Source: an uncultured Clostridia bacterium (GTDB lineage Bacteria; Bacillota; Clostridia; Lachnospirales; CAG-274). From it: 64,000 bases of DNA. The notes below the pieces were generated by a model that was not told the origin of the DNA, searched no databases, and saw only the letters and a list, made by a program, of their open reading frames with translations. Below are positions 17,065 through 25,562 of the stretch, piece after piece. The stretch is from contig CANQBJ010000001.1 of the NCBI GenBank assembly GCA_947589665.1, forward strand, positions 1 through 64,000. Direction: 5' to 3'. The translations under genes were made by a program, and so were the position numbers. The stretch's first letter is position 1. Every line of letters begins with the position of its first letter.

Positions 17065-18588
17065 ATGAACAGCAATGACAAGCTTTTGGTATCCGTTGAT
17101 ATAGGCATCAGAGGAAACAGCCTTCTGAATTACTTCATGGATTTCAAGGCAAATATACTGGGTCCCGAAGACTTTGCAGTTGACGGAGATACCGTATATA
17201 TACTTAATTCTATTGACAACACGGTACTTGAATTTAAAAATAATAAATTCATATGCAGTCATAATGCAGGTCTTGTTTACGGTATAAAGGTCGCTGCATC
17301 AAATGGGGCTATCTATATACTGCGCAATGATTTTTCAATAATGCGTATAGGCACCGATATTACGGAAACTATGGCTCTTTACAACGTACAGACGGAGGCC
17401 ATAGTTGATTTCATGGTTTTGGGAGAAAAGATATATATTGTCTTTTTCGACGGTATGAAAGGTATTACATATGAATTTGACTTTGATACCGCAGGCATTG
17501 ACATAAATAAGGTAAAAAGCTATAACGGCCGTATTTTTGACGAAAATACACTTTATGAAACACAGCTTACAGCCTATGATATGCAAACAGGCGGCAGCGG
17601 AAGGATCATAATTACAGACCTTGACGGCAGAAATGCCCGTGAGATACCCATACATACTAAGCATTTTCTTTCCGGAGCGCAGTATTTCGGCAGTGATGGG
17701 GAAGGCGGCACATATCTGAAAATATATGAATCTGAGACTGACGACCGCTATCAGACAATAGTTGAGTCAAGGCTAGTCTTTATCGATCCCCAGGGTCAGG
17801 AAAAGTATGTGCGCCAGCTTCCCGAACAGTATAAACATATAACCAATCAGGATAAAAGCATAAACGGACAGATATATTCCCTGAATGCCTTTAAAAACGG
17901 CGTAGAGCTTATTATAACGGCAAAGCCCGATGAAGAATCTACACGAGAATATACATCACGGCTTGATGAGGTCATTCCGCCATCAATGTCTTCGGAAACA
18001 ATTACCCCCGATCCCACAAAGGCAATAACCAGAGAACAGATAATGCAAAATGCCATGGATTTTCATTCCTTTAACTGGAGCTGTAACGAGGTAAATCTTC
18101 TGCCTCTTCCGGGCTGGGCAGCACCTCGCTTTGTTATGGGTCCCGGAAACTATACCTCTATGCCGTACTGCTGGGGCGGAAACTGTACTATGGAAGAGTA
18201 CTATGCGGGTATGGCAAGCGGCGGACGTGTAGGAAATATAAACTCTCCGGGCCCTGCCCTTGTTCCCGATACCTTTGGTCACGACTGCTCAGGCTTTGTG
18301 GGACTGTGCTGGGGAGAAACTCAGAAATACAGCACCAACACTATACAAGGCATTGCCGATCCCATAAGCAGTTCGGACCTTAAGGCAGGAGACGCTTTGG
18401 ACGCTCCCTTTTACCACATACTCCTTTTTGAAAAAAGAGACGGCTGGGGAAATTATATACTCTTTGAATCTACTGTATTCAGCCGTTTTGACAGAGTTTC
18501 ACATACTATTAGACCTATCACCAGCTTAAAAAACTTTATTCCTCTGCGGTATAAAAATGTAGAGGACAGCGGAATGCAGAGTATGTAA
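17065..18588 (+). CDS. NlpC/P60-like cysteine peptidase domain behind a beta-propeller-like N-terminus
   Basis: A 507-residue protein. Residues about 30-290 consist of repeated short strands with patterns such as DGDTVYILNS and NGAIYILRN, resembling a beta-propeller of the NHL/SMP-30 type. A low-complexity linker (about 300-320) leads to a C-terminal domain with the NlpC/P60 signature: Cys408 in GHDCSGFVGLCW and a candidate catalytic His451 in FYHILLFEK. Such domains usually cut peptidoglycan peptides outside the cell, yet no signal peptide or lipobox is visible at the start MNSNDKLLVSVDIG. The start has an AAGGAAGG site. I infer either an intracellular role or an export route not seen here. 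Confidence 0.65.
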   Translation: MNSNDKLLVSVDIGIRGNSLLNYFMDFKANILGPEDFAVDGDTVYILNSIDNTVLEFKNNKFICSHNAGLVYGIKVAASNGAIYILRNDFSIMRIGTDITETMALYNVQTEAIVDFMVLGEKIYIVFFDGMKGITYEFDFDTAGIDINKVKSYNGRIFDENTLYETQLTAYDMQTGGSGRIIITDLDGRNAREIPIHTKHFLSGAQYFGSDGEGGTYLKIYESETDDRYQTIVESRLVFIDPQGQEKYVRQLPEQYKHITNQDKSINGQIYSLNAFKNGVELIITAKPDEESTREYTSRLDEVIPPSMSSETITPDPTKAITREQIMQNAMDFHSFNWSCNEVNLLPLPGWAAPRFVMGPGNYTSMPYCWGGNCTMEEYYAGMASGGRVGNINSPGPALVPDTFGHDCSGFVGLCWGETQKYSTNTIQGIADPISSSDLKAGDALDAPFYHILLFEKRDGWGNYILFESTVFSRFDRVSHTIRPITSLKNFIPLRYKNVEDSGMQSM

Positions 18589-18637: not shown

Positions 18638-18665
18638 AAGAGAGCGTCGGCATGGGCGCTCTCTT
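18638..18665 (+). terminator. Terminator of the NlpC/P60-like gene
   Basis: AAGAGAGCG (18638-18646) pairs with CGCTCTCTT (18657-18665) and is followed by a T-rich tract. It sits between the convergent ends of this gene and the small membrane protein gene at 18674-19093, and may serve both. Confidence 0.8.
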
Positions 18666-18673
18666 AATATTTT

Positions 18674-19093
18674 TTATATTTTTTCACAGGTACCAAGTCC
18701 GAGGAACACACCGCTTAGTACGAAAGACCATATATCCGTATATTTATATAACATAAGGAAATATGCACTTGTCATACCGTGTATAAAGCAGCCTGCCAGC
18801 ATAATGTAGTAAAACAGTATCCAAACAACAGAAAGAGATGTGAAAGCATTTGCGGCAGTCCTTGATGTAACTCTCAGACACAGCCCCGAAACAACTGTAG
18901 TTATAAGCGCTGAAAGTGAAAATGCTATTGCGGGCAGGGCGGCTTGTTCATACAAAAGCTTATATTCCATACCGCTGTACGAAAGCGCCGTTTTTTCGGC
19001 TATACCGTTTGCTGTATAATATATGGCATAGGCAATACCTGAAAATAATAGTATCAGGCTTATTATTATAACGATCTTGTTTTGTCTTTTCAT
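18674..19093 (-). CDS. Hypothetical membrane protein at the end of the M56/BlaI cassette
   Basis: I do not recognise this 139-residue protein. It has four hydrophobic segments (about residues 6-27, 46-70, 83-105 and 112-132), starting after a short basic stretch MKRQNK. A GAGGAGG site precedes the ATG. It lies 15 bp after the first M56 metalloprotease gene, so it is probably co-transcribed with the cassette. Its role may be linked to membrane stress or to the protease pair, but nothing in the sequence proves this. Confidence 0.7.
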   Translation of the reverse strand: MKRQNKIVIIISLILLFSGIAYAIYYTANGIAEKTALSYSGMEYKLLYEQAALPAIAFSLSALITTVVSGLCLRVTSRTAANAFTSLSVVWILFYYIMLAGCFIHGMTSAYFLMLYKYTDIWSFVLSGVFLGLGTCEKI

Positions 19094-19108
19094 AAGTCAT
19101 CCTCCTCT

Positions 19109-20722
19109 TTAGTATCTGTTTACCCTATCGGGCAATGTATCGGGATCGCCTATGGAATGTGAGCTTACAATATAAGCCTTCTGACTGTCAGAGACATACC
19201 TGTCTATAAGAACACCTGCCGTATCCGTATCAAAAAGCTGCACATAGTAATATCTTCCCAAGTCCATAACTCTTTTATCTGTGTTATGCACTTTTTTCAT
19301 ATACCTGTACACGTCAGGCAGAAGGTCGCTGTAATGTATATCCGCCGCTTTTTCTATAGCCTTTGCCTCAGTTATGAGCGTCCTGCCTTCCGTGCTGCAT
19401 AGGCTTATTATTTTTATTCCCCTTAGGGCGTCGCTGTCGGTGTATATACTGCTACACCTGAACACGGTGCCTATATCCTCTGCGGAAATGTACAGAGAGC
19501 CCTTTGCCTTAAGGGGCGGGGCATTAAGCTGCTGTTGTTTTCCGTATACTGTCACCATAGGGGTATCGGCGCCTATCGTTACCTTCATACCTGAATTTTT
19601 TATTATTAGGGTATCTGCCTGCTGCTCCACGTCTACGTTCAGCTTTTCTGCTATAGCTCTGACAGGCACATATGTAATGCCATTTCTGGTAAGCACCTGC
19701 TTTTCGGAAACTATACTGCCGTTTGCAAAGAGCAGTACAGGTGCGTCAGTGGGATATGCATATGTATCATTGGCATTCGGTATGATCACACGGGTATCGG
19801 AAGGGCCTTCCGCCATAGGGTCTGTAGTGCATATAAAGGCGGCAATTATAATAAGTACAATGCCTGAAGGCGCAATTATCCTTTTGGGGCTTTTGTAGGA
19901 AATCACATTTTTTATACGTTTTTCGGCAGAGCCTTCGCCAAAGGAAATGGACATAGGTCTGCGGTTAAGGGCAAAGGACAGTATGGATGCGGAATAATCG
20001 CCCTTTATTTCCTCGCCCATAGCCTCAATTACGGCCTCGTCGCAGCTTTCCTCCATATCCGCGGTCATACTGCGGTATGCAAGCCATACAAGAGGGTCAA
20101 ACCAGTGTATGCTCACAAGGAGCGATGCTGTCGCTTTTATAAGGGTATCGTGCCTTTTTATGTGATGCCTTTCGTGGCATACTATATATGACATTTCCCT
20201 TTCGCTCATACGGAAAGGAATATATATTTTAGGCTTAAAAATTCCCATAACAAAGGGTGTGGGGATATTGTCGCACTGATATATATTATCCCGATATATA
20301 ACTGCTTTGTTTACCATTTCGGCTGTTTTGATATACAATACGATTTTATATATCAAAATAGCTAAAAACACTCCCAGCCATATTAAAAACAGTATTTTTA
20401 TAGGGTCTACAACTGATGTTACTCCCATATCCAAAGCAGTATTAACAGACGTACTGACAGGTGCTGTATTCACAGGGGGAATTTCTCTGTGTACTATATT
20501 GACAGGCATATATTCCGTATTTCTTAAAAATGAAATGTTGAATAAGCTGAATACAGAGGATACTGAAAAAGGGAATATAAGCCGAAACCCTGCAAATATC
20601 CAGAGTATATAGGAATATATTTTAGGCATTCTTTTTATAAAAAGTCTTACTATATATATTACTGCAATAACATAGGCAGCTGTGATATTCATGTTTATGA
20701 GCTGTATTATAAATCTGTTCAT
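19109..20722 (-). CDS. M56 (BlaR1/MecR1-like) membrane metalloprotease with a copper-amine-oxidase-N-like sensor domain
   Basis: A 537-residue membrane protein. N-terminal helices (about 12-30, 36-55 and 108-130) surround a cytoplasmic zinc protease domain with HERHH at 183-187 and the downstream acidic motif DMEESCDEA; a further helix at about 283-300 crosses the membrane. In BlaR1 a penicillin-binding domain would follow; here the external part is instead a stalk-like domain of the copper amine oxidase N type (about 325-430, with TYVPVRAIAEKL) plus a C-terminal region I do not recognise. From the family, ligand sensing outside activates the protease, which leads to BlaI cleavage. It is fourth in the cassette. 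Confidence 0.85.
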   Translation of the reverse strand: MNRFIIQLINMNITAAYVIAVIYIVRLFIKRMPKIYSYILWIFAGFRLIFPFSVSSVFSLFNISFLRNTEYMPVNIVHREIPPVNTAPVSTSVNTALDMGVTSVVDPIKILFLIWLGVFLAILIYKIVLYIKTAEMVNKAVIYRDNIYQCDNIPTPFVMGIFKPKIYIPFRMSEREMSYIVCHERHHIKRHDTLIKATASLLVSIHWFDPLVWLAYRSMTADMEESCDEAVIEAMGEEIKGDYSASILSFALNRRPMSISFGEGSAEKRIKNVISYKSPKRIIAPSGIVLIIIAAFICTTDPMAEGPSDTRVIIPNANDTYAYPTDAPVLLFANGSIVSEKQVLTRNGITYVPVRAIAEKLNVDVEQQADTLIIKNSGMKVTIGADTPMVTVYGKQQQLNAPPLKAKGSLYISAEDIGTVFRCSSIYTDSDALRGIKIISLCSTEGRTLITEAKAIEKAADIHYSDLLPDVYRYMKKVHNTDKRVMDLGRYYYVQLFDTDTAGVLIDRYVSDSQKAYIVSSHSIGDPDTLPDRVNRY

Positions 20723-20754
20723 TACGTTACCTCATATATAAAATCACGGTTGCG

Positions 20755-21702
20755 CTAGTAGCTTAATGTAATTAATCCGCTTTCTGCATTATAAGCAATA
20801 CCTGCGCCCAAAGCCTCGCTTACGGCTCTCATAGGTATGTATGTTTTACCATTTATTATTTCGGCAGGTACATCTGTATTATAGATCTCTCCGTTTATTT
20901 TGTAGCAAGGCTTATTTATAATAAACTCCACATTTTTTTCGCCCTTTACAACAGCAGTTTTGCTCTCAGCTATCCATTCGACCTGACAGTTCATAGCTTC
21001 TCCTATAGCTCTGAGAGGTACAAGAAGTCTGTCATTTTTAATTACTGCTCCCATTTCATCGGCACTGACTACCATAATGGGTCTGTGCATTTCGTCGGCA
21101 TACTGCCACAGGCTCATTTCCTCGTCGTTAAGAGATACATTTGTTTCTATATCCAGTGGCTTTGTAATATCCACGACAGTTCTTTCAGCCTCAACAGGCA
21201 CAGGTACAGGCAGGTCCTTTTCATTCTCATAATAGGGAGAAAGCAGCACGTTTTTATCTCCAAAGGTAGCAAATGTACGCATTGTATCGCCTTGGTGTAT
21301 TATATACGCATTGCCATCCTTAAGTTCATCCCAGCAGCTTTCGTCACCGCTCATTATAAGACCGTCATAGCTTGAAGAGGCAATATCAAGACCGTGTTTA
21401 AATTCAGAAACGTCTATATTTCCTTTTATAACACCGTTTGATATAATAGGGAAACGATAGAAACAGCCGTTGGTACTGCCGTCGGTGTATTCAATGGCAA
21501 AGGGCGTGCCTATTACAAAATCTCTGCCTATGTGACGAGCGATCGTGTCTGCATATCCGTTGGGAAATTTTTCCTTAAGCACCTTAATTGCCTCTGAGCA
21601 GTCCTGTGTTTCAATAAGTATGGGTTTGTCTGCATTTACATTTGCATATACGGCAGCAGGCATAAATACTGCAGCCATAAGCATTGCTAAAAATTTCTTC
21701 AT
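20755..21702 (-). CDS. Secreted protein joining the two sensor-type domains of the neighbouring M56 proteins
   Basis: A 315-residue protein with a clear signal peptide (about residues 1-20, ending in AVYA). Residues about 26-190 match the external domain of the M56 protein encoded at 21839-23731: both begin with ILIETQDCS, continue with VIG-PFA-E, and share RTVVDITKP. Residues about 205-315 form a copper-amine-oxidase-N-like stalk domain with LLVPLRAIGEAM and TYIPMRAVSEAL, like the external part of the other M56 protein (19109-20722). It thus contains both domains without the protease. I infer a secreted ligand-binding or decoy partner for the two sensors. It is 136 bp after one protease gene and 32 bp before the other. 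Confidence 0.8.
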   Translation of the reverse strand: MKKFLAMLMAAVFMPAAVYANVNADKPILIETQDCSEAIKVLKEKFPNGYADTIARHIGRDFVIGTPFAIEYTDGSTNGCFYRFPIISNGVIKGNIDVSEFKHGLDIASSSYDGLIMSGDESCWDELKDGNAYIIHQGDTMRTFATFGDKNVLLSPYYENEKDLPVPVPVEAERTVVDITKPLDIETNVSLNDEEMSLWQYADEMHRPIMVVSADEMGAVIKNDRLLVPLRAIGEAMNCQVEWIAESKTAVVKGEKNVEFIINKPCYKINGEIYNTDVPAEIINGKTYIPMRAVSEALGAGIAYNAESGLITLSY

Positions 21703-21838
21703 ATAATGACCTCCTTATGTTTTTTTACATTTCTGTATATAAAATCGTAATTCAGTGCATAGAGTATGCCTTGAAGGATATGCAGCCAAAGGATATAACT
21801 AAAGAGCAGTGATTATTGCCGCTGCTGTACTCTTTTTA

Positions 21839-23731
21839 TTACTTTAGCCAGGATTCAGACCTTACGGATATATGACCTACTATTTGTTCGTCATTTCCCA
21901 TGTTCAACAGGGCATCATGTATTTCTGACCTTTCCCATTTTATGCCTGTTGTAGGGTCTGAATCAGTATACATTGTAAAAGCTCCGTTTTCATCTACAGT
22001 GAAGCGCAGCAGGAAGTTCATTGTTTTAGGCTGCAAATATTCTCTATAGTATGTATCATCACGGTTATTTTTTGAATTTGCAGCAATATCAGGCTCTCTG
22101 TCAAAATTCTTATGATCCATTGTAAAGGTCAGAATAATTTCAGCTTCCTTGCCGATCGTATTTTCCCTGTAATTGAAAACACTCATATCCAGTATCTCAT
22201 AATAGGGAGAAAATGTTTTAAAGGCTTCATTATAGAGATAGTCTGCTATTTTTTTGTAATACTTATATTCTGACATATCCCTTTCATAAATACTGAACTG
22301 TCTTTCCTGCGGTATAGCTATATTCATAGGCTTTGTAATGTCCACAACTGTTCTTTTTATATCTTCAGGCAGAGCGTCAGAGGATATTTCATCTCTGTCA
22401 TGTGTACGGGATATATTAATTTTATTATCCCCCGAAACAGCATATATACCTCCTGATTTGTCCATGTATATAATATAGGCAATGCCCGCATTGCCATCTC
22501 TGAGCCTTTCAAGACTGCTCTCATCTATATCTGCAAAAAGCCCCTTGCCTATACCTGCTGCCGTAATACCCTCTTCGGGAGTAATGGCTGCCGATATAAA
22601 GCCTGTTATAACACCATGATTAAGCAAAGGAAAATAATAATAGCTATTGCTTTTACCCTCGCATTCAAGGGCAAAGGGCATACCTATTACAACATTTTGC
22701 CCTCCATATCTTATTACCTCATCCATATATCCATTTATAAGCTTTTCCTTCATAAGCATAACTGCTTGGGAACAATCCTGTGTTTCAATAAGTATATGCT
22801 TGTCCGCAGAATAAATCACGGAATTTGTGGTGCAGATAGCTGCAGTAACTATTATAAGCACGATACCGAGAACAGAAATTATCTTTTTAGGTTTTTTATA
22901 TGACAGCACATTTTTTATACGTCTTTTTGCCGAGCCTTCGCCGAATGAAAGGGGCATAGGTCTGCGGTTAAGGGCAAAGGACAGTATGGATGCGGAATAA
23001 TCGCCCTTTATTTCCTCGCCCATAGCCTCAATTACAGCCTCGTCACAGCTTTCCTCCATATCCGCGGTCATACTGCGGTATGCAAGCCATACAAGGGGGT
23101 CAAACCAGTGTATGCTCACAAGGAGCGACGCTGCCGCTTTTATAAGGGTATCGTGCCTTTTTATGTGATGCTTTTCGTGGCATATTATGTAGGAAAGCTC
23201 CTTTTTACTCATTCGGAAAGGAATATATATCTTAGGCTTAAAAATCCCCATAACAAAGGGTGTGGGGATATTGTCGCACTGATATATATTATCCTTATAT
23301 ATGACTGCTTTGCTTACCATTTTATATGTATTGATATACAGTATAGCCTTATGTACAATAATAGTCAAAAATACTCCGAGCCATATTAAAAACATTATGC
23401 TTAACATAGTATCTGTGCCTGCCGTGGGAGGTAAGCTGTTTGCGGAAGAACTCAGTTGTTCTGCTGCCGTGTTTACTGTAGGTACTGCTGCATTTCCCAT
23501 ATCGTAAGGCACATATTTCATACCTGTATTTCTCAGAAATGATATATTGAACAGGCTCAGGGCAGAGGGTAGGGAAAAGGGACATACAAGCCGAAAGCCT
23601 GCAAATATCCAGAGCATATATGAATATTTTTTAGGCAGTTTTATTATAAAAAGCCTTATTATATATATGGCAGCAATTACATAGGCGGCTGTGATATTCA
23701 TATTTATAAGCCTTGTTATAAATGTTGCCAT
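21839..23731 (-). CDS. M56 (BlaR1/MecR1-like) membrane metalloprotease with a novel external domain
   Basis: A 630-residue paralogue of the protease encoded at 19109-20722. It has the same helices and zinc site (HEKHH at 185-189, DMEESCDEA at about 224-232), with a helix at about 283-302. The external part (about 308-630) starts with ILIETQDCS and matches the secreted protein encoded at 20755-21702 over about 170 residues, then continues with a unique C-terminal region. No penicillin-binding serine motifs are visible. It begins 4 bp after blaI, so it is its closest partner. By analogy with BlaR1, ligand binding outside would trigger cleavage of the BlaI-type repressor; the ligand is unknown. 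Confidence 0.87.
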   Translation of the reverse strand: MATFITRLINMNITAAYVIAAIYIIRLFIIKLPKKYSYMLWIFAGFRLVCPFSLPSALSLFNISFLRNTGMKYVPYDMGNAAVPTVNTAAEQLSSSANSLPPTAGTDTMLSIMFLIWLGVFLTIIVHKAILYINTYKMVSKAVIYKDNIYQCDNIPTPFVMGIFKPKIYIPFRMSKKELSYIICHEKHHIKRHDTLIKAAASLLVSIHWFDPLVWLAYRSMTADMEESCDEAVIEAMGEEIKGDYSASILSFALNRRPMPLSFGEGSAKRRIKNVLSYKKPKKIISVLGIVLIIVTAAICTTNSVIYSADKHILIETQDCSQAVMLMKEKLINGYMDEVIRYGGQNVVIGMPFALECEGKSNSYYYFPLLNHGVITGFISAAITPEEGITAAGIGKGLFADIDESSLERLRDGNAGIAYIIYMDKSGGIYAVSGDNKINISRTHDRDEISSDALPEDIKRTVVDITKPMNIAIPQERQFSIYERDMSEYKYYKKIADYLYNEAFKTFSPYYEILDMSVFNYRENTIGKEAEIILTFTMDHKNFDREPDIAANSKNNRDDTYYREYLQPKTMNFLLRFTVDENGAFTMYTDSDPTTGIKWERSEIHDALLNMGNDEQIVGHISVRSESWLK

Positions 23732-23735
23732 AGGC

Positions 23736-24095
23736 TCACCTCATATTTTCGTCAATTATTTTTTTGAGCTTATCCGCCTCTTTCTGCGATATCCTTCTGC
23801 TGTCCAGAAATGTCGTTACCAGATCGGATATGGAGCCGTTAAATGTCCTGTCCACAAAAAATTCCGTTTCTTCAAGCTGTACCCTTTCCTTTGGTATCAC
23901 ACTTGTTATCACTGCGTTGTCGCTTTTTATGAAGCCTCTTTCGCAAAGCCGCTTTATAACAGTATATGTAGTGGACTTTTTCCAGCCCAGCTTTTTAAGG
24001 CAGAGCTTTACAAGCTCGCCTGAGTTTATTGGCACGCTTTCCCACACTATAGTCATAAATCTGTATTCGCTGTCACAAAGTCTGTAGTTATCCAT
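23736..24095 (-). CDS. BlaI/MecI/CopY-family repressor
   Basis: A 119-residue winged-helix repressor. It opens with the family pattern YRLCDSEYRFMTIVWES and has the recognition-helix region KSTTYTVIKRLCERGFI (about residues 35-51), followed by the C-terminal dimerisation part. Family repressors are cleaved after an M56 protease is activated. It is the first gene of a minus-strand cassette of five genes. Two sites TCTACAnnnnTAGA-like sit on its own promoter, which supports autoregulation. Confidence 0.93.
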   Translation of the reverse strand: MDNYRLCDSEYRFMTIVWESVPINSGELVKLCLKKLGWKKSTTYTVIKRLCERGFIKSDNAVITSVIPKERVQLEETEFFVDRTFNGSISDLVTTFLDSRRISQKEADKLKKIIDENMR

Positions 24096-24118
24096 AGTCC
24101 TGTCTCCTTTATATTATA

Positions 24119-24171
24119 TCTACAGTTGTAGACCTCATATTAAGTCTACAACAATAGACCAATTTTGTCAA
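24119..24171 (-). promoter_or_regulatory. BlaI-type promoter with two operator palindromes
   Basis: On the minus strand TTGACA (24166-24171) is 17 bases from TAGACT (24143-24148). One operator-like dyad, GTCTACAACAATAGAC (24144-24159), fills the spacer and the -10 box; a second, TCTACAGTTGTAGA (24119-24132), has perfect 6-bp arms and lies at the expected transcription start. The TACA/TGTA core agrees with known BlaI/MecI operators. Confidence 0.85.
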
Positions 24172-24227: not shown

Positions 24228-25562
24228 TTATCCTATCATAAGGGAATTGAATTTTATAGAGTCCAGAAGATCGATATTTGCATTTCCTGTCATATTATGG
24301 GCAGTCTGAGGTTTTATGCCTGACGCCTGTCTTAAAAGCTCTCTTGCGTCCTCAAGGTCGATCAGATTGTTGTTGTCGATATCCAGATATCTGTAGTTGT
24401 ATGTCCTTGTGCTATAAACAGGGAAGCCCATATCCTCTATATACATTTTCTGCGCTATAGTCGGCGCCTCAAGATCTGTCTGATAAGCTATATCGTGATC
24501 ATGTCCTCCGTCAAGCTCCTTCATTTTCTCTGTGCCTATGAGCAGATATGTATAATTCTGCATTGTGCTGCTATAGCCTGTTGTATCGCACCATGTAGGG
24601 TCGCTGAAATAAAATCTGCCGTCAAGCTTTACTGCATTCCATTTATGAGTTGAGCTTGTCATACACATAGCCTTTACTCCCGTCTTATTGCAAAGTATCT
24701 TTAAGGCCTCGGCATAGCCCTCGCATACAGGATATTTTGTATCATCATTACCTTCGCCGTATAAAAGTGCGGAAGGGGCTATATAGGGATAGCGCAGACC
24801 ATCTATAAATTCCTTGGGATATTTGCTCTTATTTGCTATATAGGTATTATAGGTGTTGTGCTGCGTCAGCCATTCCGTAAAATATTTTACCTTGTAGAAA
24901 TCGGATACATTTTCGGGCAGGGCTGAAATTATTTCATTTACTTTGCTGTCCATAGCCTGTATATCGGCATCAAGCTGCTCCTGTGACGTATAACATCCGG
25001 GCCAATAGTTTTCATAATCTGTTCTTCCATGTAGCTGCGCATCAATAGATATTCTGTCTTTATATATGTTGATGCTTATGCCATAGGCAAGCTTATTGAG
25101 ATCGACCCAGAATTTTTCGGGATGATCCATATAGAAATAAACATATGCGGGACGGGATAAAAGCTTTACAAGAGGATAGCCTGTAGCCTCCTGTATCTTC
25201 TGATTATAATTATCCTTATCCGCTCCGCTGACAGGTATTTCAATATGTACAAGCTCCGACATAGATACACCGTCCTTCATATTATCTGCTGAGGACGCAT
25301 AGCCGTTATATATGGCTTTTTCATAATCTGTAAGCTGGTCATAATACAGCGTGGAGTCTATATCGCTGACTGCCATAGGCATAGGCATATCGCTGCCCTC
25401 TGCAAAGAAAATATCGGTAAAGGCAATGTCGTCACCATCTAAGAGCCTTTGAGCAATTTCTTCCTCGGTATATTTTTCTTCGGGTTCCTTCAGGGTTCGG
25501 GCATATGTATTGCATACGCAAAGCGCCGTCAGTATGATCGTGAGCAATATTGCCTTTTTCAT
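24228..25562 (-). CDS. Secreted transglutaminase-like protein with a C-terminal dockerin-like module
   Basis: A 444-residue protein with a signal peptide (about residues 1-21). The transglutaminase-like core has Cys280 in YPVCEGYAEA, His306 in THKWNAV and Asp321 in YFSDPTW, the usual Cys-His-Asp triad. Residues about 393-444 look like a type I dockerin: a first calcium loop with Asp394, Asp396, Asn398, Asp402 and Asp405 and its helix, then a second, weaker half (NANIDLLDS). Dockerins bind cohesins in cellulosome-like assemblies, so the protein may be displayed or complexed at the cell surface. No cohesin is in the window. It may act as a protease rather than as a cross-linker. Confidence 0.82.
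   Translation of the reverse strand: MKKAILLTIILTALCVCNTYARTLKEPEEKYTEEEIAQRLLDGDDIAFTDIFFAEGSDMPMPMAVSDIDSTLYYDQLTDYEKAIYNGYASSADNMKDGVSMSELVHIEIPVSGADKDNYNQKIQEATGYPLVKLLSRPAYVYFYMDHPEKFWVDLNKLAYGISINIYKDRISIDAQLHGRTDYENYWPGCYTSQEQLDADIQAMDSKVNEIISALPENVSDFYKVKYFTEWLTQHNTYNTYIANKSKYPKEFIDGLRYPYIAPSALLYGEGNDDTKYPVCEGYAEALKILCNKTGVKAMCMTSSTHKWNAVKLDGRFYFSDPTWCDTTGYSSTMQNYTYLLIGTEKMKELDGGHDHDIAYQTDLEAPTIAQKMYIEDMGFPVYSTRTYNYRYLDIDNNNLIDLEDARELLRQASGIKPQTAHNMTGNANIDLLDSIKFNSLMIG

What the first reader, a model, noticed from the sequence alone, without database searches (positions are those of the whole stretch)
18674..24171. BlaI/M56 cassette with mixed and matched sensor domains
A BlaI repressor leads an operon of two M56 proteases and a secreted protein. 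Neither protease has a penicillin-binding domain. One (19109-20722) has a copper-amine-oxidase-N-like domain outside; the other (21839-23731) has an unknown domain starting ILIETQDCS; the secreted protein (20755-21702) contains relatives of both joined together. This is a modular arrangement I have not seen described, and suggests a ligand-binding or competitor protein working with two receptors that release one repressor.
Basis: partly seen in the sequence, partly recalled or inferred. Interest (0 to 1): 0.76.

Follow-up and report, generated by a model that had tools for sequence, protein, structure and literature searches.

The report
Receptor with protease-prodomain bait, twin receptor
A gut bacterium carries two sister membrane receptors that probably switch one repressor, and one of them has taken as its outside part the fold that normally keeps a secreted cysteine protease inactive, a fold also made by the secreted protein encoded beside it, which suggests that the cell senses a papain-type enzyme by offering it a bait.

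Summary
In detail: BlaI, two M56 (BlaR1-type) proteases and a secreted protein form one operon, with a fifth small membrane gene. Neither receptor has a penicillin-binding domain, although the same genome has a separate true BlaR1. The 'unknown' ILIETQDCS domain is identified: in both the secreted protein and one receptor it is the staphopain-B prodomain fold (profile match to 1x9y E 1.7e-4; predicted structures, Z about 10). In related genomes it heads papain-like cysteine proteases, usually followed by a gene like the secreted one. Both receptor ectodomains have free, secreted relatives, so they look like captured secreted proteins. The receptors are duplicates whose cytosolic protease loops were kept alike by gene conversion (dS 0.20 against about 1.1 beside it) while extracellular loop 1 diverged. 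One promoter with a tandem BlaI operator, unique in the genome and conserved in seven of eight related cassettes, drives the operon. The exact three-protein combination occurs in no other genome searched (392 of the order): the modular logic is conserved, this assembly is lineage-specific. Best reading: a BlaR1-type circuit in which the prodomain is bait for a papain-fold enzyme and the secreted protein its inducible inhibitor. Ligand and inhibition are inferred.

The parts
24143..24171 (-). sigma-A-type promoter TTGACA-17-TAGACT of the operon
   Evidence: consensus scan, best match on the - strand of the region; the same -35 (TTGACAAA) lies at the same place in related cassettes
24144..24159 (-). 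BlaI operator 1, GTCTATTGTTGTAGAC, between -35 and -10
   Evidence: tandem pair found once in the genome; conserved in 7 of 8 related cassettes; 0 of 20000 shuffles
24118..24133 (-). BlaI operator 2, GTCTACAACTGTAGAT, 26 bp downstream of operator 1
23736..24095 (-). BlaI/MecI-family repressor, 119 aa
   Evidence: Penicillinase_R E 3.8e-21; 63-74% identical to BlaI of the near cassettes
21839..23731 (-). M56B, BlaR1-type receptor, 630 aa
   Evidence: Peptidase_M56 E 4.1e-47, HExxH at 185, hydrophobic segments as in BlaR1
22322..22813 (-). M56B ectodomain part 1: staphopain-type prodomain (aa 307-470)
   Evidence: 37-41% identical to SEC; model against 1x9y Z 9.8, 149 residues; inside the genus SEC clade in the tree, 99/98
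21839..22306 (-). M56B ectodomain part 2: possibly NTF2-like module (aa 476-630)
   Evidence: 38% identical over 125 aa to a stand-alone lipoprotein in G021; weak NTF2-like matches, Z 5-5.6, on a low-confidence stretch
20755..21702 (-). SEC, secreted protein, 315 aa: signal peptide, prodomain, stalk domain
21148..21627 (-). SEC prodomain (aa 26-185)
   Evidence: model (pLDDT 83) against 1x9y prostaphopain B Z 10.3, 147 residues; Foldseek rank 1
20770..21051 (-). SEC Cu_amine_oxidN1 (stalk) domain (aa 218-311)
   Evidence: Pfam E 2.7e-25; E. coli amine oxidase N-terminal domain Z 9.4
19109..20722 (-). M56A, second BlaR1-type receptor, 537 aa
   Evidence: Peptidase_M56 E 2.5e-48; 73% identical to M56B over the first 305 aa; sister in the tree, 100/100
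19148..19765 (-). M56A ectodomain: stalk domain plus C-terminal part (aa about 320-525)
   Evidence: Cu_amine_oxidN1 E 3.1e-10; aligns to free secreted proteins of G003, G011 and G065
19943..20317 (-). M56A tract (codons 136-260) homogenised with M56B
   Evidence: dS 0.20 against 1.1 in neighbouring segments; 88% aa identity in the protease loop against 36% in extracellular loop 1
22946..23320 (-). the matching tract in M56B
18674..19093 (-). 139-aa membrane protein, last gene of the operon
   Evidence: ORF; three to four hydrophobic segments; only weak relatives
18638..18665 (.). G+C-rich inverted repeat with T run, probable terminator at the operon end
   Evidence: scan; consensus match only

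Best explanation
The locus is a BlaI/BlaR1-type signalling operon rebuilt to sense something other than beta-lactams. BlaI sits on a tandem operator over the only strong promoter and holds the whole operon down. Two membrane receptors, M56A and M56B, have near-identical cytosolic zinc-protease loops and so probably cleave the same BlaI; each answers to its own ectodomain, probably through its own extracellular loop 1. M56B's ectodomain is a staphopain-type protease prodomain taken over from the lineage of the neighbouring secreted protein SEC, fused to a second module that occurs elsewhere as a lipoprotein. In its original setting this domain covers the active site of a papain-like cysteine protease. 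I propose that in M56B it is bait: when a papain-fold enzyme binds or cuts it, the receptor fires, BlaI is cleaved, and the operon, including SEC (a secreted prodomain on a stalk, that is, a soluble inhibitor or decoy), is made until the enzyme is titrated. M56A reports a second input through a stalk-type ectodomain also related to secreted proteins. Shown by sequence or prediction: architecture, homologies, fold, operator, duplication, conversion, capture. Inferred: BlaI cleavage by both receptors, enzyme binding, inhibition, negative feedback.
For: Architecture. Prodomain identity: profile to 1x9y E 1.7e-4; Foldseek rank 1; Z 10.3 and 9.8, next unrelated hits at 5.6 or less in the M56B search; the domain heads C39_2/C70/C10-like proteases in related genomes, one of which matches Pfam Staphopain_pro at E 6e-5, below its cut-off. 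Gene pairs: prodomain-protease followed by an SEC-like gene in G006 (twice), G021, G019 and G066, the layout of staphopain-staphostatin and SpeB-Spi (PMC3462683). Capture: tree; synteny DnaE-HisC-24228 gene-SEC in G003 without the cassette; M56A ectodomain relatives; M56B C-terminal relative. One repressor: tandem operator unique in the genome and conserved in 7 of 8 cassettes; gene conversion. BlaR1 cleaves BlaI directly, and its loop EL1 competes in the sensor active site (PMC9834060). An operon with one BlaI and two BlaR1s, and tandem operators, are known in C. thermocellum (PMC8457756). A membrane signalling protein that is itself the receptor for a hostile enzyme is known: RsiV-lysozyme (PMC4183432).
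Against: No inhibition or ligand was or could be tested. The genome has no C39_2 peptidase, so no cognate enzyme is in sight. The fusion is in one metagenome-assembled genome only. The related two-gene cassettes hold no SEC, so SEC may be a passenger. M56B's ectodomain model is of modest confidence overall (pLDDT 63; prodomain part about 80).
Confidence: 0.42

Rival explanations
1. Homeostat for the cell's own papain-fold enzyme: SEC and M56B's prodomain bind the neighbouring secreted transglutaminase-like protein (24228-25562), and the receptor adjusts inhibitor or chaperone supply to it.
For: SEC and the transglutaminase-like gene are on one strand and near each other both here and in G003 (51% and 58% identity); the protein matches a transglutaminase-like structure (9crn, E 2.2e-5); transglutaminases share the papain-type fold (own knowledge).
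Against: The gene lies outside the BlaI operon, upstream of its promoter; other orphan SEC genes (G002, G004, G007, G011, own contig 51) have no such neighbour in the stretch read.
Confidence: 0.18
2. Passive capture: the BlaI-M56 unit landed beside SEC and took up domains; the receptors sense general envelope stress (for example cleavage or unfolding of the ectodomain), and SEC is a passenger in the operon.
For: Related BlaI-M56 cassettes are two-gene units with unrelated ectodomains, LytR_cpsA_psr among them; SEC at this site needs no cassette in G003.
Against: Purifying selection on the receptor cores (dN/dS about 0.3) and homogenised protease loops argue that both receptors work; the prodomain fold is kept over its full length in M56B.
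Confidence: 0.25
3. A beta-lactam (or cell-wall) resistance operon with degenerate sensors.
For: BlaI and M56 families; the BlaR1 models of NCBIfam match the cores, far below cut-off.
Against: No penicillin-binding domain and no beta-lactamase or PBP gene in the operon; the genome has a separate BlaI-BlaR1 pair with a transpeptidase domain.
Confidence: 0.05
4. One reading: SEC is a soluble ligand-binding or competitor protein that modulates both receptors.
For: SEC holds domain types found in both receptors.
Against: SEC's stalk domain is only weakly like M56A's; SEC-like proteins exist in many genomes with no such receptors next to them, so modulating receptors is unlikely to be their original role. 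Compatible with the best explanation as a side effect (titration).
Confidence: 0.1

Closest known systems
BlaI-BlaR1 / MecI-MecR1 (M56 family)
   Same: repressor plus M56 receptor in one operon, hydrophobic segments and HExxH zinc site as in BlaR1, C-terminal ectodomain, dyad operators over the promoter
   Different: no penicillin-binding sensor; two receptors; ectodomains related to secreted proteins; no beta-lactamase or PBP gene
Clostridium thermocellum BlaI_0696 operon (BlaI, two BlaR1s, hypothetical)
   Same: one BlaI with two BlaR1-type receptors; inverted GTCTAT repeats in two pairs (PMC8457756)
   Different: its sensor domains were not examined here
Prostaphopain B proregion (S. aureus SspB, family C47; PDB 1x9y)
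   Same: fold over the whole proregion (Z about 10)
   Different: here without the catalytic domain: alone on a stalk (SEC) or as a receptor ectodomain (M56B)
Staphostatin / Spi inhibitors
   Same: in relatives, a likely inhibitor gene follows the protease gene
   Different: SEC is exported and prodomain-like with a stalk; staphostatins are beta-barrel inhibitors thought to act in the cytoplasm, and no cognate protease gene is present here
RsiV (lysozyme receptor of sigma-V)
   Same: a membrane signalling protein that binds the hostile enzyme itself (PMC4183432)
   Different: an anti-sigma factor cut by signal peptidase, not an M56 receptor with BlaI

Membership tests
BlaR1/MecR1 beta-lactam receptors | Peptidase_M56 domain with HExxH | tested here: met
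   Pfam; HExxH at 183/185; hydrophobic segments
BlaR1/MecR1 beta-lactam receptors | C-terminal penicillin-binding (transpeptidase-like) sensor | tested here: not met
   absent in M56A and M56B; found in the genome's own contig-3 BlaR1 as positive control
BlaR1/MecR1 beta-lactam receptors | cognate BlaI gene in the same operon | tested here: met
   BlaI 4 bp upstream of M56B
BlaR1/MecR1 beta-lactam receptors | controls a beta-lactamase or PBP2a-type gene | tested here: not met
   no such gene in the operon; the tandem operator occurs once in the genome
BlaI/MecI repressors | Penicillinase_R winged-helix domain | tested here: met
   E 3.8e-21
BlaI/MecI repressors | dyad operators over its own promoter | tested here: met
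BlaI/MecI repressors | inactivation by receptor cleavage | not testable with these tools
   needs biochemistry
staphopain-type prodomain | sequence and fold of the proregion | tested here: met
   Pfam Staphopain_pro matches one related protease below cut-off and no member of A1 alone
staphopain-type prodomain | attached to a papain-like catalytic domain | tested here: not met
   not in SEC or M56B; met in relatives L031, L034, L115
Staphostatin/Spi-type protease inhibitors | gene next to the cognate protease | tested here: not met
   no C39_2 peptidase in this genome; met in relatives
Staphostatin/Spi-type protease inhibitors | inhibits the protease | not testable with these tools
   needs an enzyme assay

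The most novel reading that the evidence does not exclude
A bacterial membrane receptor that uses a captured zymogen prodomain as bait to detect a papain-type cysteine protease and, by destroying one shared repressor, induces a secreted version of the same prodomain as inhibitor, with a duplicated sister receptor feeding a second signal into the same repressor.
Probability: 0.3. Interest if true: 0.82.

Novelty: new variant of a known kind. Interest (0 to 1): 0.62.

Why it matters
BlaR1-type receptors are known almost only as beta-lactam sensors. Here one clade of M56 receptors with a conserved BlaI and operator carries exchangeable ectodomains that are recognisable as relatives of the cells' own secreted proteins, one of them a protease prodomain. 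That makes a testable proposal for what some non-penicillin M56 receptors sense: enzymes that act outside the cell, reported by a bait domain. The pair of receptors with converted protease loops and diverged extracellular loops is also a natural experiment on how such receptors change input while keeping output.

Tried and rejected
Pfam and NCBIfam name no family for the ILIETQDCS domain directly. A first whole-protein search in the species collection found no relative by its patterns, and a broad profile was too divergent for that tool; a narrower one gave 8 loci. The plasmid search hit only stalk domains. Considered and rejected: beta-lactam sensor (no transpeptidase domain; the genome has a separate real BlaR1); assembly chimera (the longest exact repeat between the receptors is 81 bp, and the ectodomain junctions lie outside the converted tract; two direct repeat copies leave no other linear order of the flanks); chance operator (single dyads genome-wide are at or below the control count, but the tandem pair is unique). 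The literature BlaI site TACA-N2-TGTA fits only one of the two dyads. The likeness of the conserved IGTPF motif to the IGTS motif of staphostatin was not taken as evidence, since the folds differ. Fold search with the second half of M56B gave only weak NTF2-like matches on a low-confidence stretch and settles nothing. Paper searches for M56 receptors with other sensor domains found no description of a prodomain or LCP ectodomain, but the library is partial.
Full report
What is there. The five genes lie head to tail on the - strand: BlaI (23736-24095), M56B (21839-23731), SEC (20755-21702), M56A (19109-20722) and a 139-residue membrane protein (18674-19093). Gaps are 4, 136, 32 and 15 bases. 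Pfam gives Penicillinase_R for BlaI, Peptidase_M56 for both receptors, Cu_amine_oxidN1 for M56A and SEC, and nothing for the ILIETQDCS domain; no penicillin-binding domain is present. The genome has further M56 genes, and one, on contig 3 beside its own BlaI, has a transpeptidase domain (E 1.1e-31), so a true beta-lactam receptor exists separately in this cell.

What the ILIETQDCS domain is. M56B and SEC share it (37% identity over 212 residues). A profile of 13 relatives finds the proregion of prostaphopain B (1x9y) as best hit among all solved structures, E 1.7e-4. Predicted structures agree: the SEC model (pLDDT 83) matches 1x9y over residues 26-182 at Z 10.3, and its stalk domain matches the N-terminal domain of E. 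coli amine oxidase; the M56B ectodomain model matches the same 1x9y proregion at Z 9.8, with the next chains at 5.6 or less. In related genomes the same domain stands at the N-terminus of papain-like proteases of the C39_2/C70/C10 kind (L031, L034, L035, L115), where it is by position a true prodomain, and one of these reaches Pfam's Staphopain_pro (E 6e-5, below cut-off). Five of these protease genes (G006 twice, G021, G019, G066; the G066 copy has a broken frame, and the G021 locus is nearly the same as one of G006) are followed directly by an SEC-like gene, the layout of protease and inhibitor known from staphopain-staphostatin and SpeB-Spi (PMC3462683). SEC is thus best read as an orphan prodomain on a stalk.

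How the receptors arose. M56A and M56B are sisters (100/100). Their closest relatives are M56 proteins at about 50% identity in BlaI-M56 two-gene cassettes of other genera, where BlaI is 63-74% identical to ours, yet the ectodomains are unrelated: two carry a LytR_cpsA_psr domain, others an unnamed domain, one is cut short. M56B's prodomain falls inside the SEC clade of its own genus (99/98), next to SEC of this genome and of G003 (89/64); the junction lies just after the last membrane helix, at the place where SEC's signal peptide ends. The rest of the M56B ectodomain has a free lipoprotein relative (38% over 125 residues). M56A's ectodomain aligns over most of its length to free secreted stalk proteins. 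Both receptors therefore wear domains of secreted proteins. In G003 the flanking genes DnaE, HisC and the 24228-25562 gene are followed by SEC with no BlaI or M56 between, so the cassette came in around a resident SEC, or was lost there.

How it is controlled. The promoter TTGACA-17-TAGACT is covered by two dyads GTCTATTGTTGTAGAC and GTCTACAACTGTAGAT, 26 bases apart. The tandem pair occurs once in the genome; the same pair, each dyad with at most one mismatch and 25-26 bases apart, lies before BlaI in seven of eight related cassettes (the eighth, L085, is the most distant, with a core only 31% identical), and in 0 of 20000 shuffles. Single dyads in the genomes are no commoner than the control pattern. 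In C. thermocellum two BlaI proteins bind such paired inverted repeats, and one of those operons also has two BlaR1 genes (PMC8457756). No promoter-like site on the - strand was found in the 136-base gap before SEC, so SEC and M56A are probably read from the BlaI promoter.

Two receptors, one repressor. Between M56A and M56B synonymous divergence is 0.20 in codons 136-260, the cytosolic protease loop, but about 1.1 in the segments on both sides of it, and dN/dS is about 0.3 overall; the protease loops are 88% identical, extracellular loop 1 only 36%. Gene conversion is the simplest account: it has kept the output parts alike while the input parts diverged. In BlaR1 of S. aureus the receptor itself cleaves BlaI, and extracellular loop 1 sits in the sensor's active site until the drug displaces it (PMC9834060). 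The pattern here is what one would expect if each receptor has its own ectodomain-loop pair and both act on the same BlaI.

Most likely working. A papain-fold enzyme binds or cuts the prodomain of M56B, the receptor cleaves BlaI, the operon opens, and SEC is secreted as soluble inhibitor or decoy. A membrane signalling protein that binds the hostile enzyme itself is known in RsiV, the receptor for lysozyme (PMC4183432). The steps from enzyme to induction are inference. The genome lacks a C39_2 peptidase, so the enzyme would come from outside or be another papain-fold protein, such as the transglutaminase-like neighbour, which is rival 1.

Limits. The full combination was found only here: 48 genomes of the family and 392 of the order were searched for the domain, and M56B is the only receptor fusion, judged by the length of the open frames and the neighbourhoods read. 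All is from one metagenome-type assembly (104 contigs, 97.9% complete). A repeat-driven mis-assembly is unlikely (longest exact run 81 bases).

Noticed in passing
L082:4874-6703 (G014) and L083:4900-6744 (G021): BlaI-M56 cassettes whose receptor carries a LytR_cpsA_psr (LCP) domain outside (E 1.6e-28, 3.1e-28): an M56 receptor with the domain of cell-wall polymer ligases.
   Followed up: partly
24228-25562: Secreted transglutaminase-like protein with a dockerin-like C-terminus, near SEC both here and in G003; matches 9crn (E 2.2e-5) though Pfam finds nothing.
   Followed up: partly
17065-18588: 507-aa protein whose C-terminal part reads like an NlpC/P60 cysteine peptidase (DCSGFV...H) but has no Pfam or PDB match.
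   Followed up: partly
L031, L032, L035 (G006, G021): A different BlaI-like gene - M56 (387 aa) - 85 aa cassette lies divergently beside the prodomain-protease plus SEC-like genes: a second association of M56 signalling with this protease family, perhaps one old event.
   Followed up: partly
L026:6566-7540 (own genome, contig 51): A second orphan SEC-like gene in the same genome, without BlaI or M56 next to it.
   Followed up: partly
L114:7200-8171 (G066): The prodomain-protease gene has a broken frame while the two SEC-like genes behind it are intact.
   Followed up: no
L127:6933-7442 (G021): Lipoprotein gene next to an elongation-factor-Tu gene; 38% identical to the second half of the M56B ectodomain.
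   Followed up: partly
21499-21513 in SEC; related loci: The most conserved motif of the domain, IGTPF, resembles the IGTS inhibitory motif reported for staphostatin B; the folds differ, so probably coincidence.
   Followed up: no
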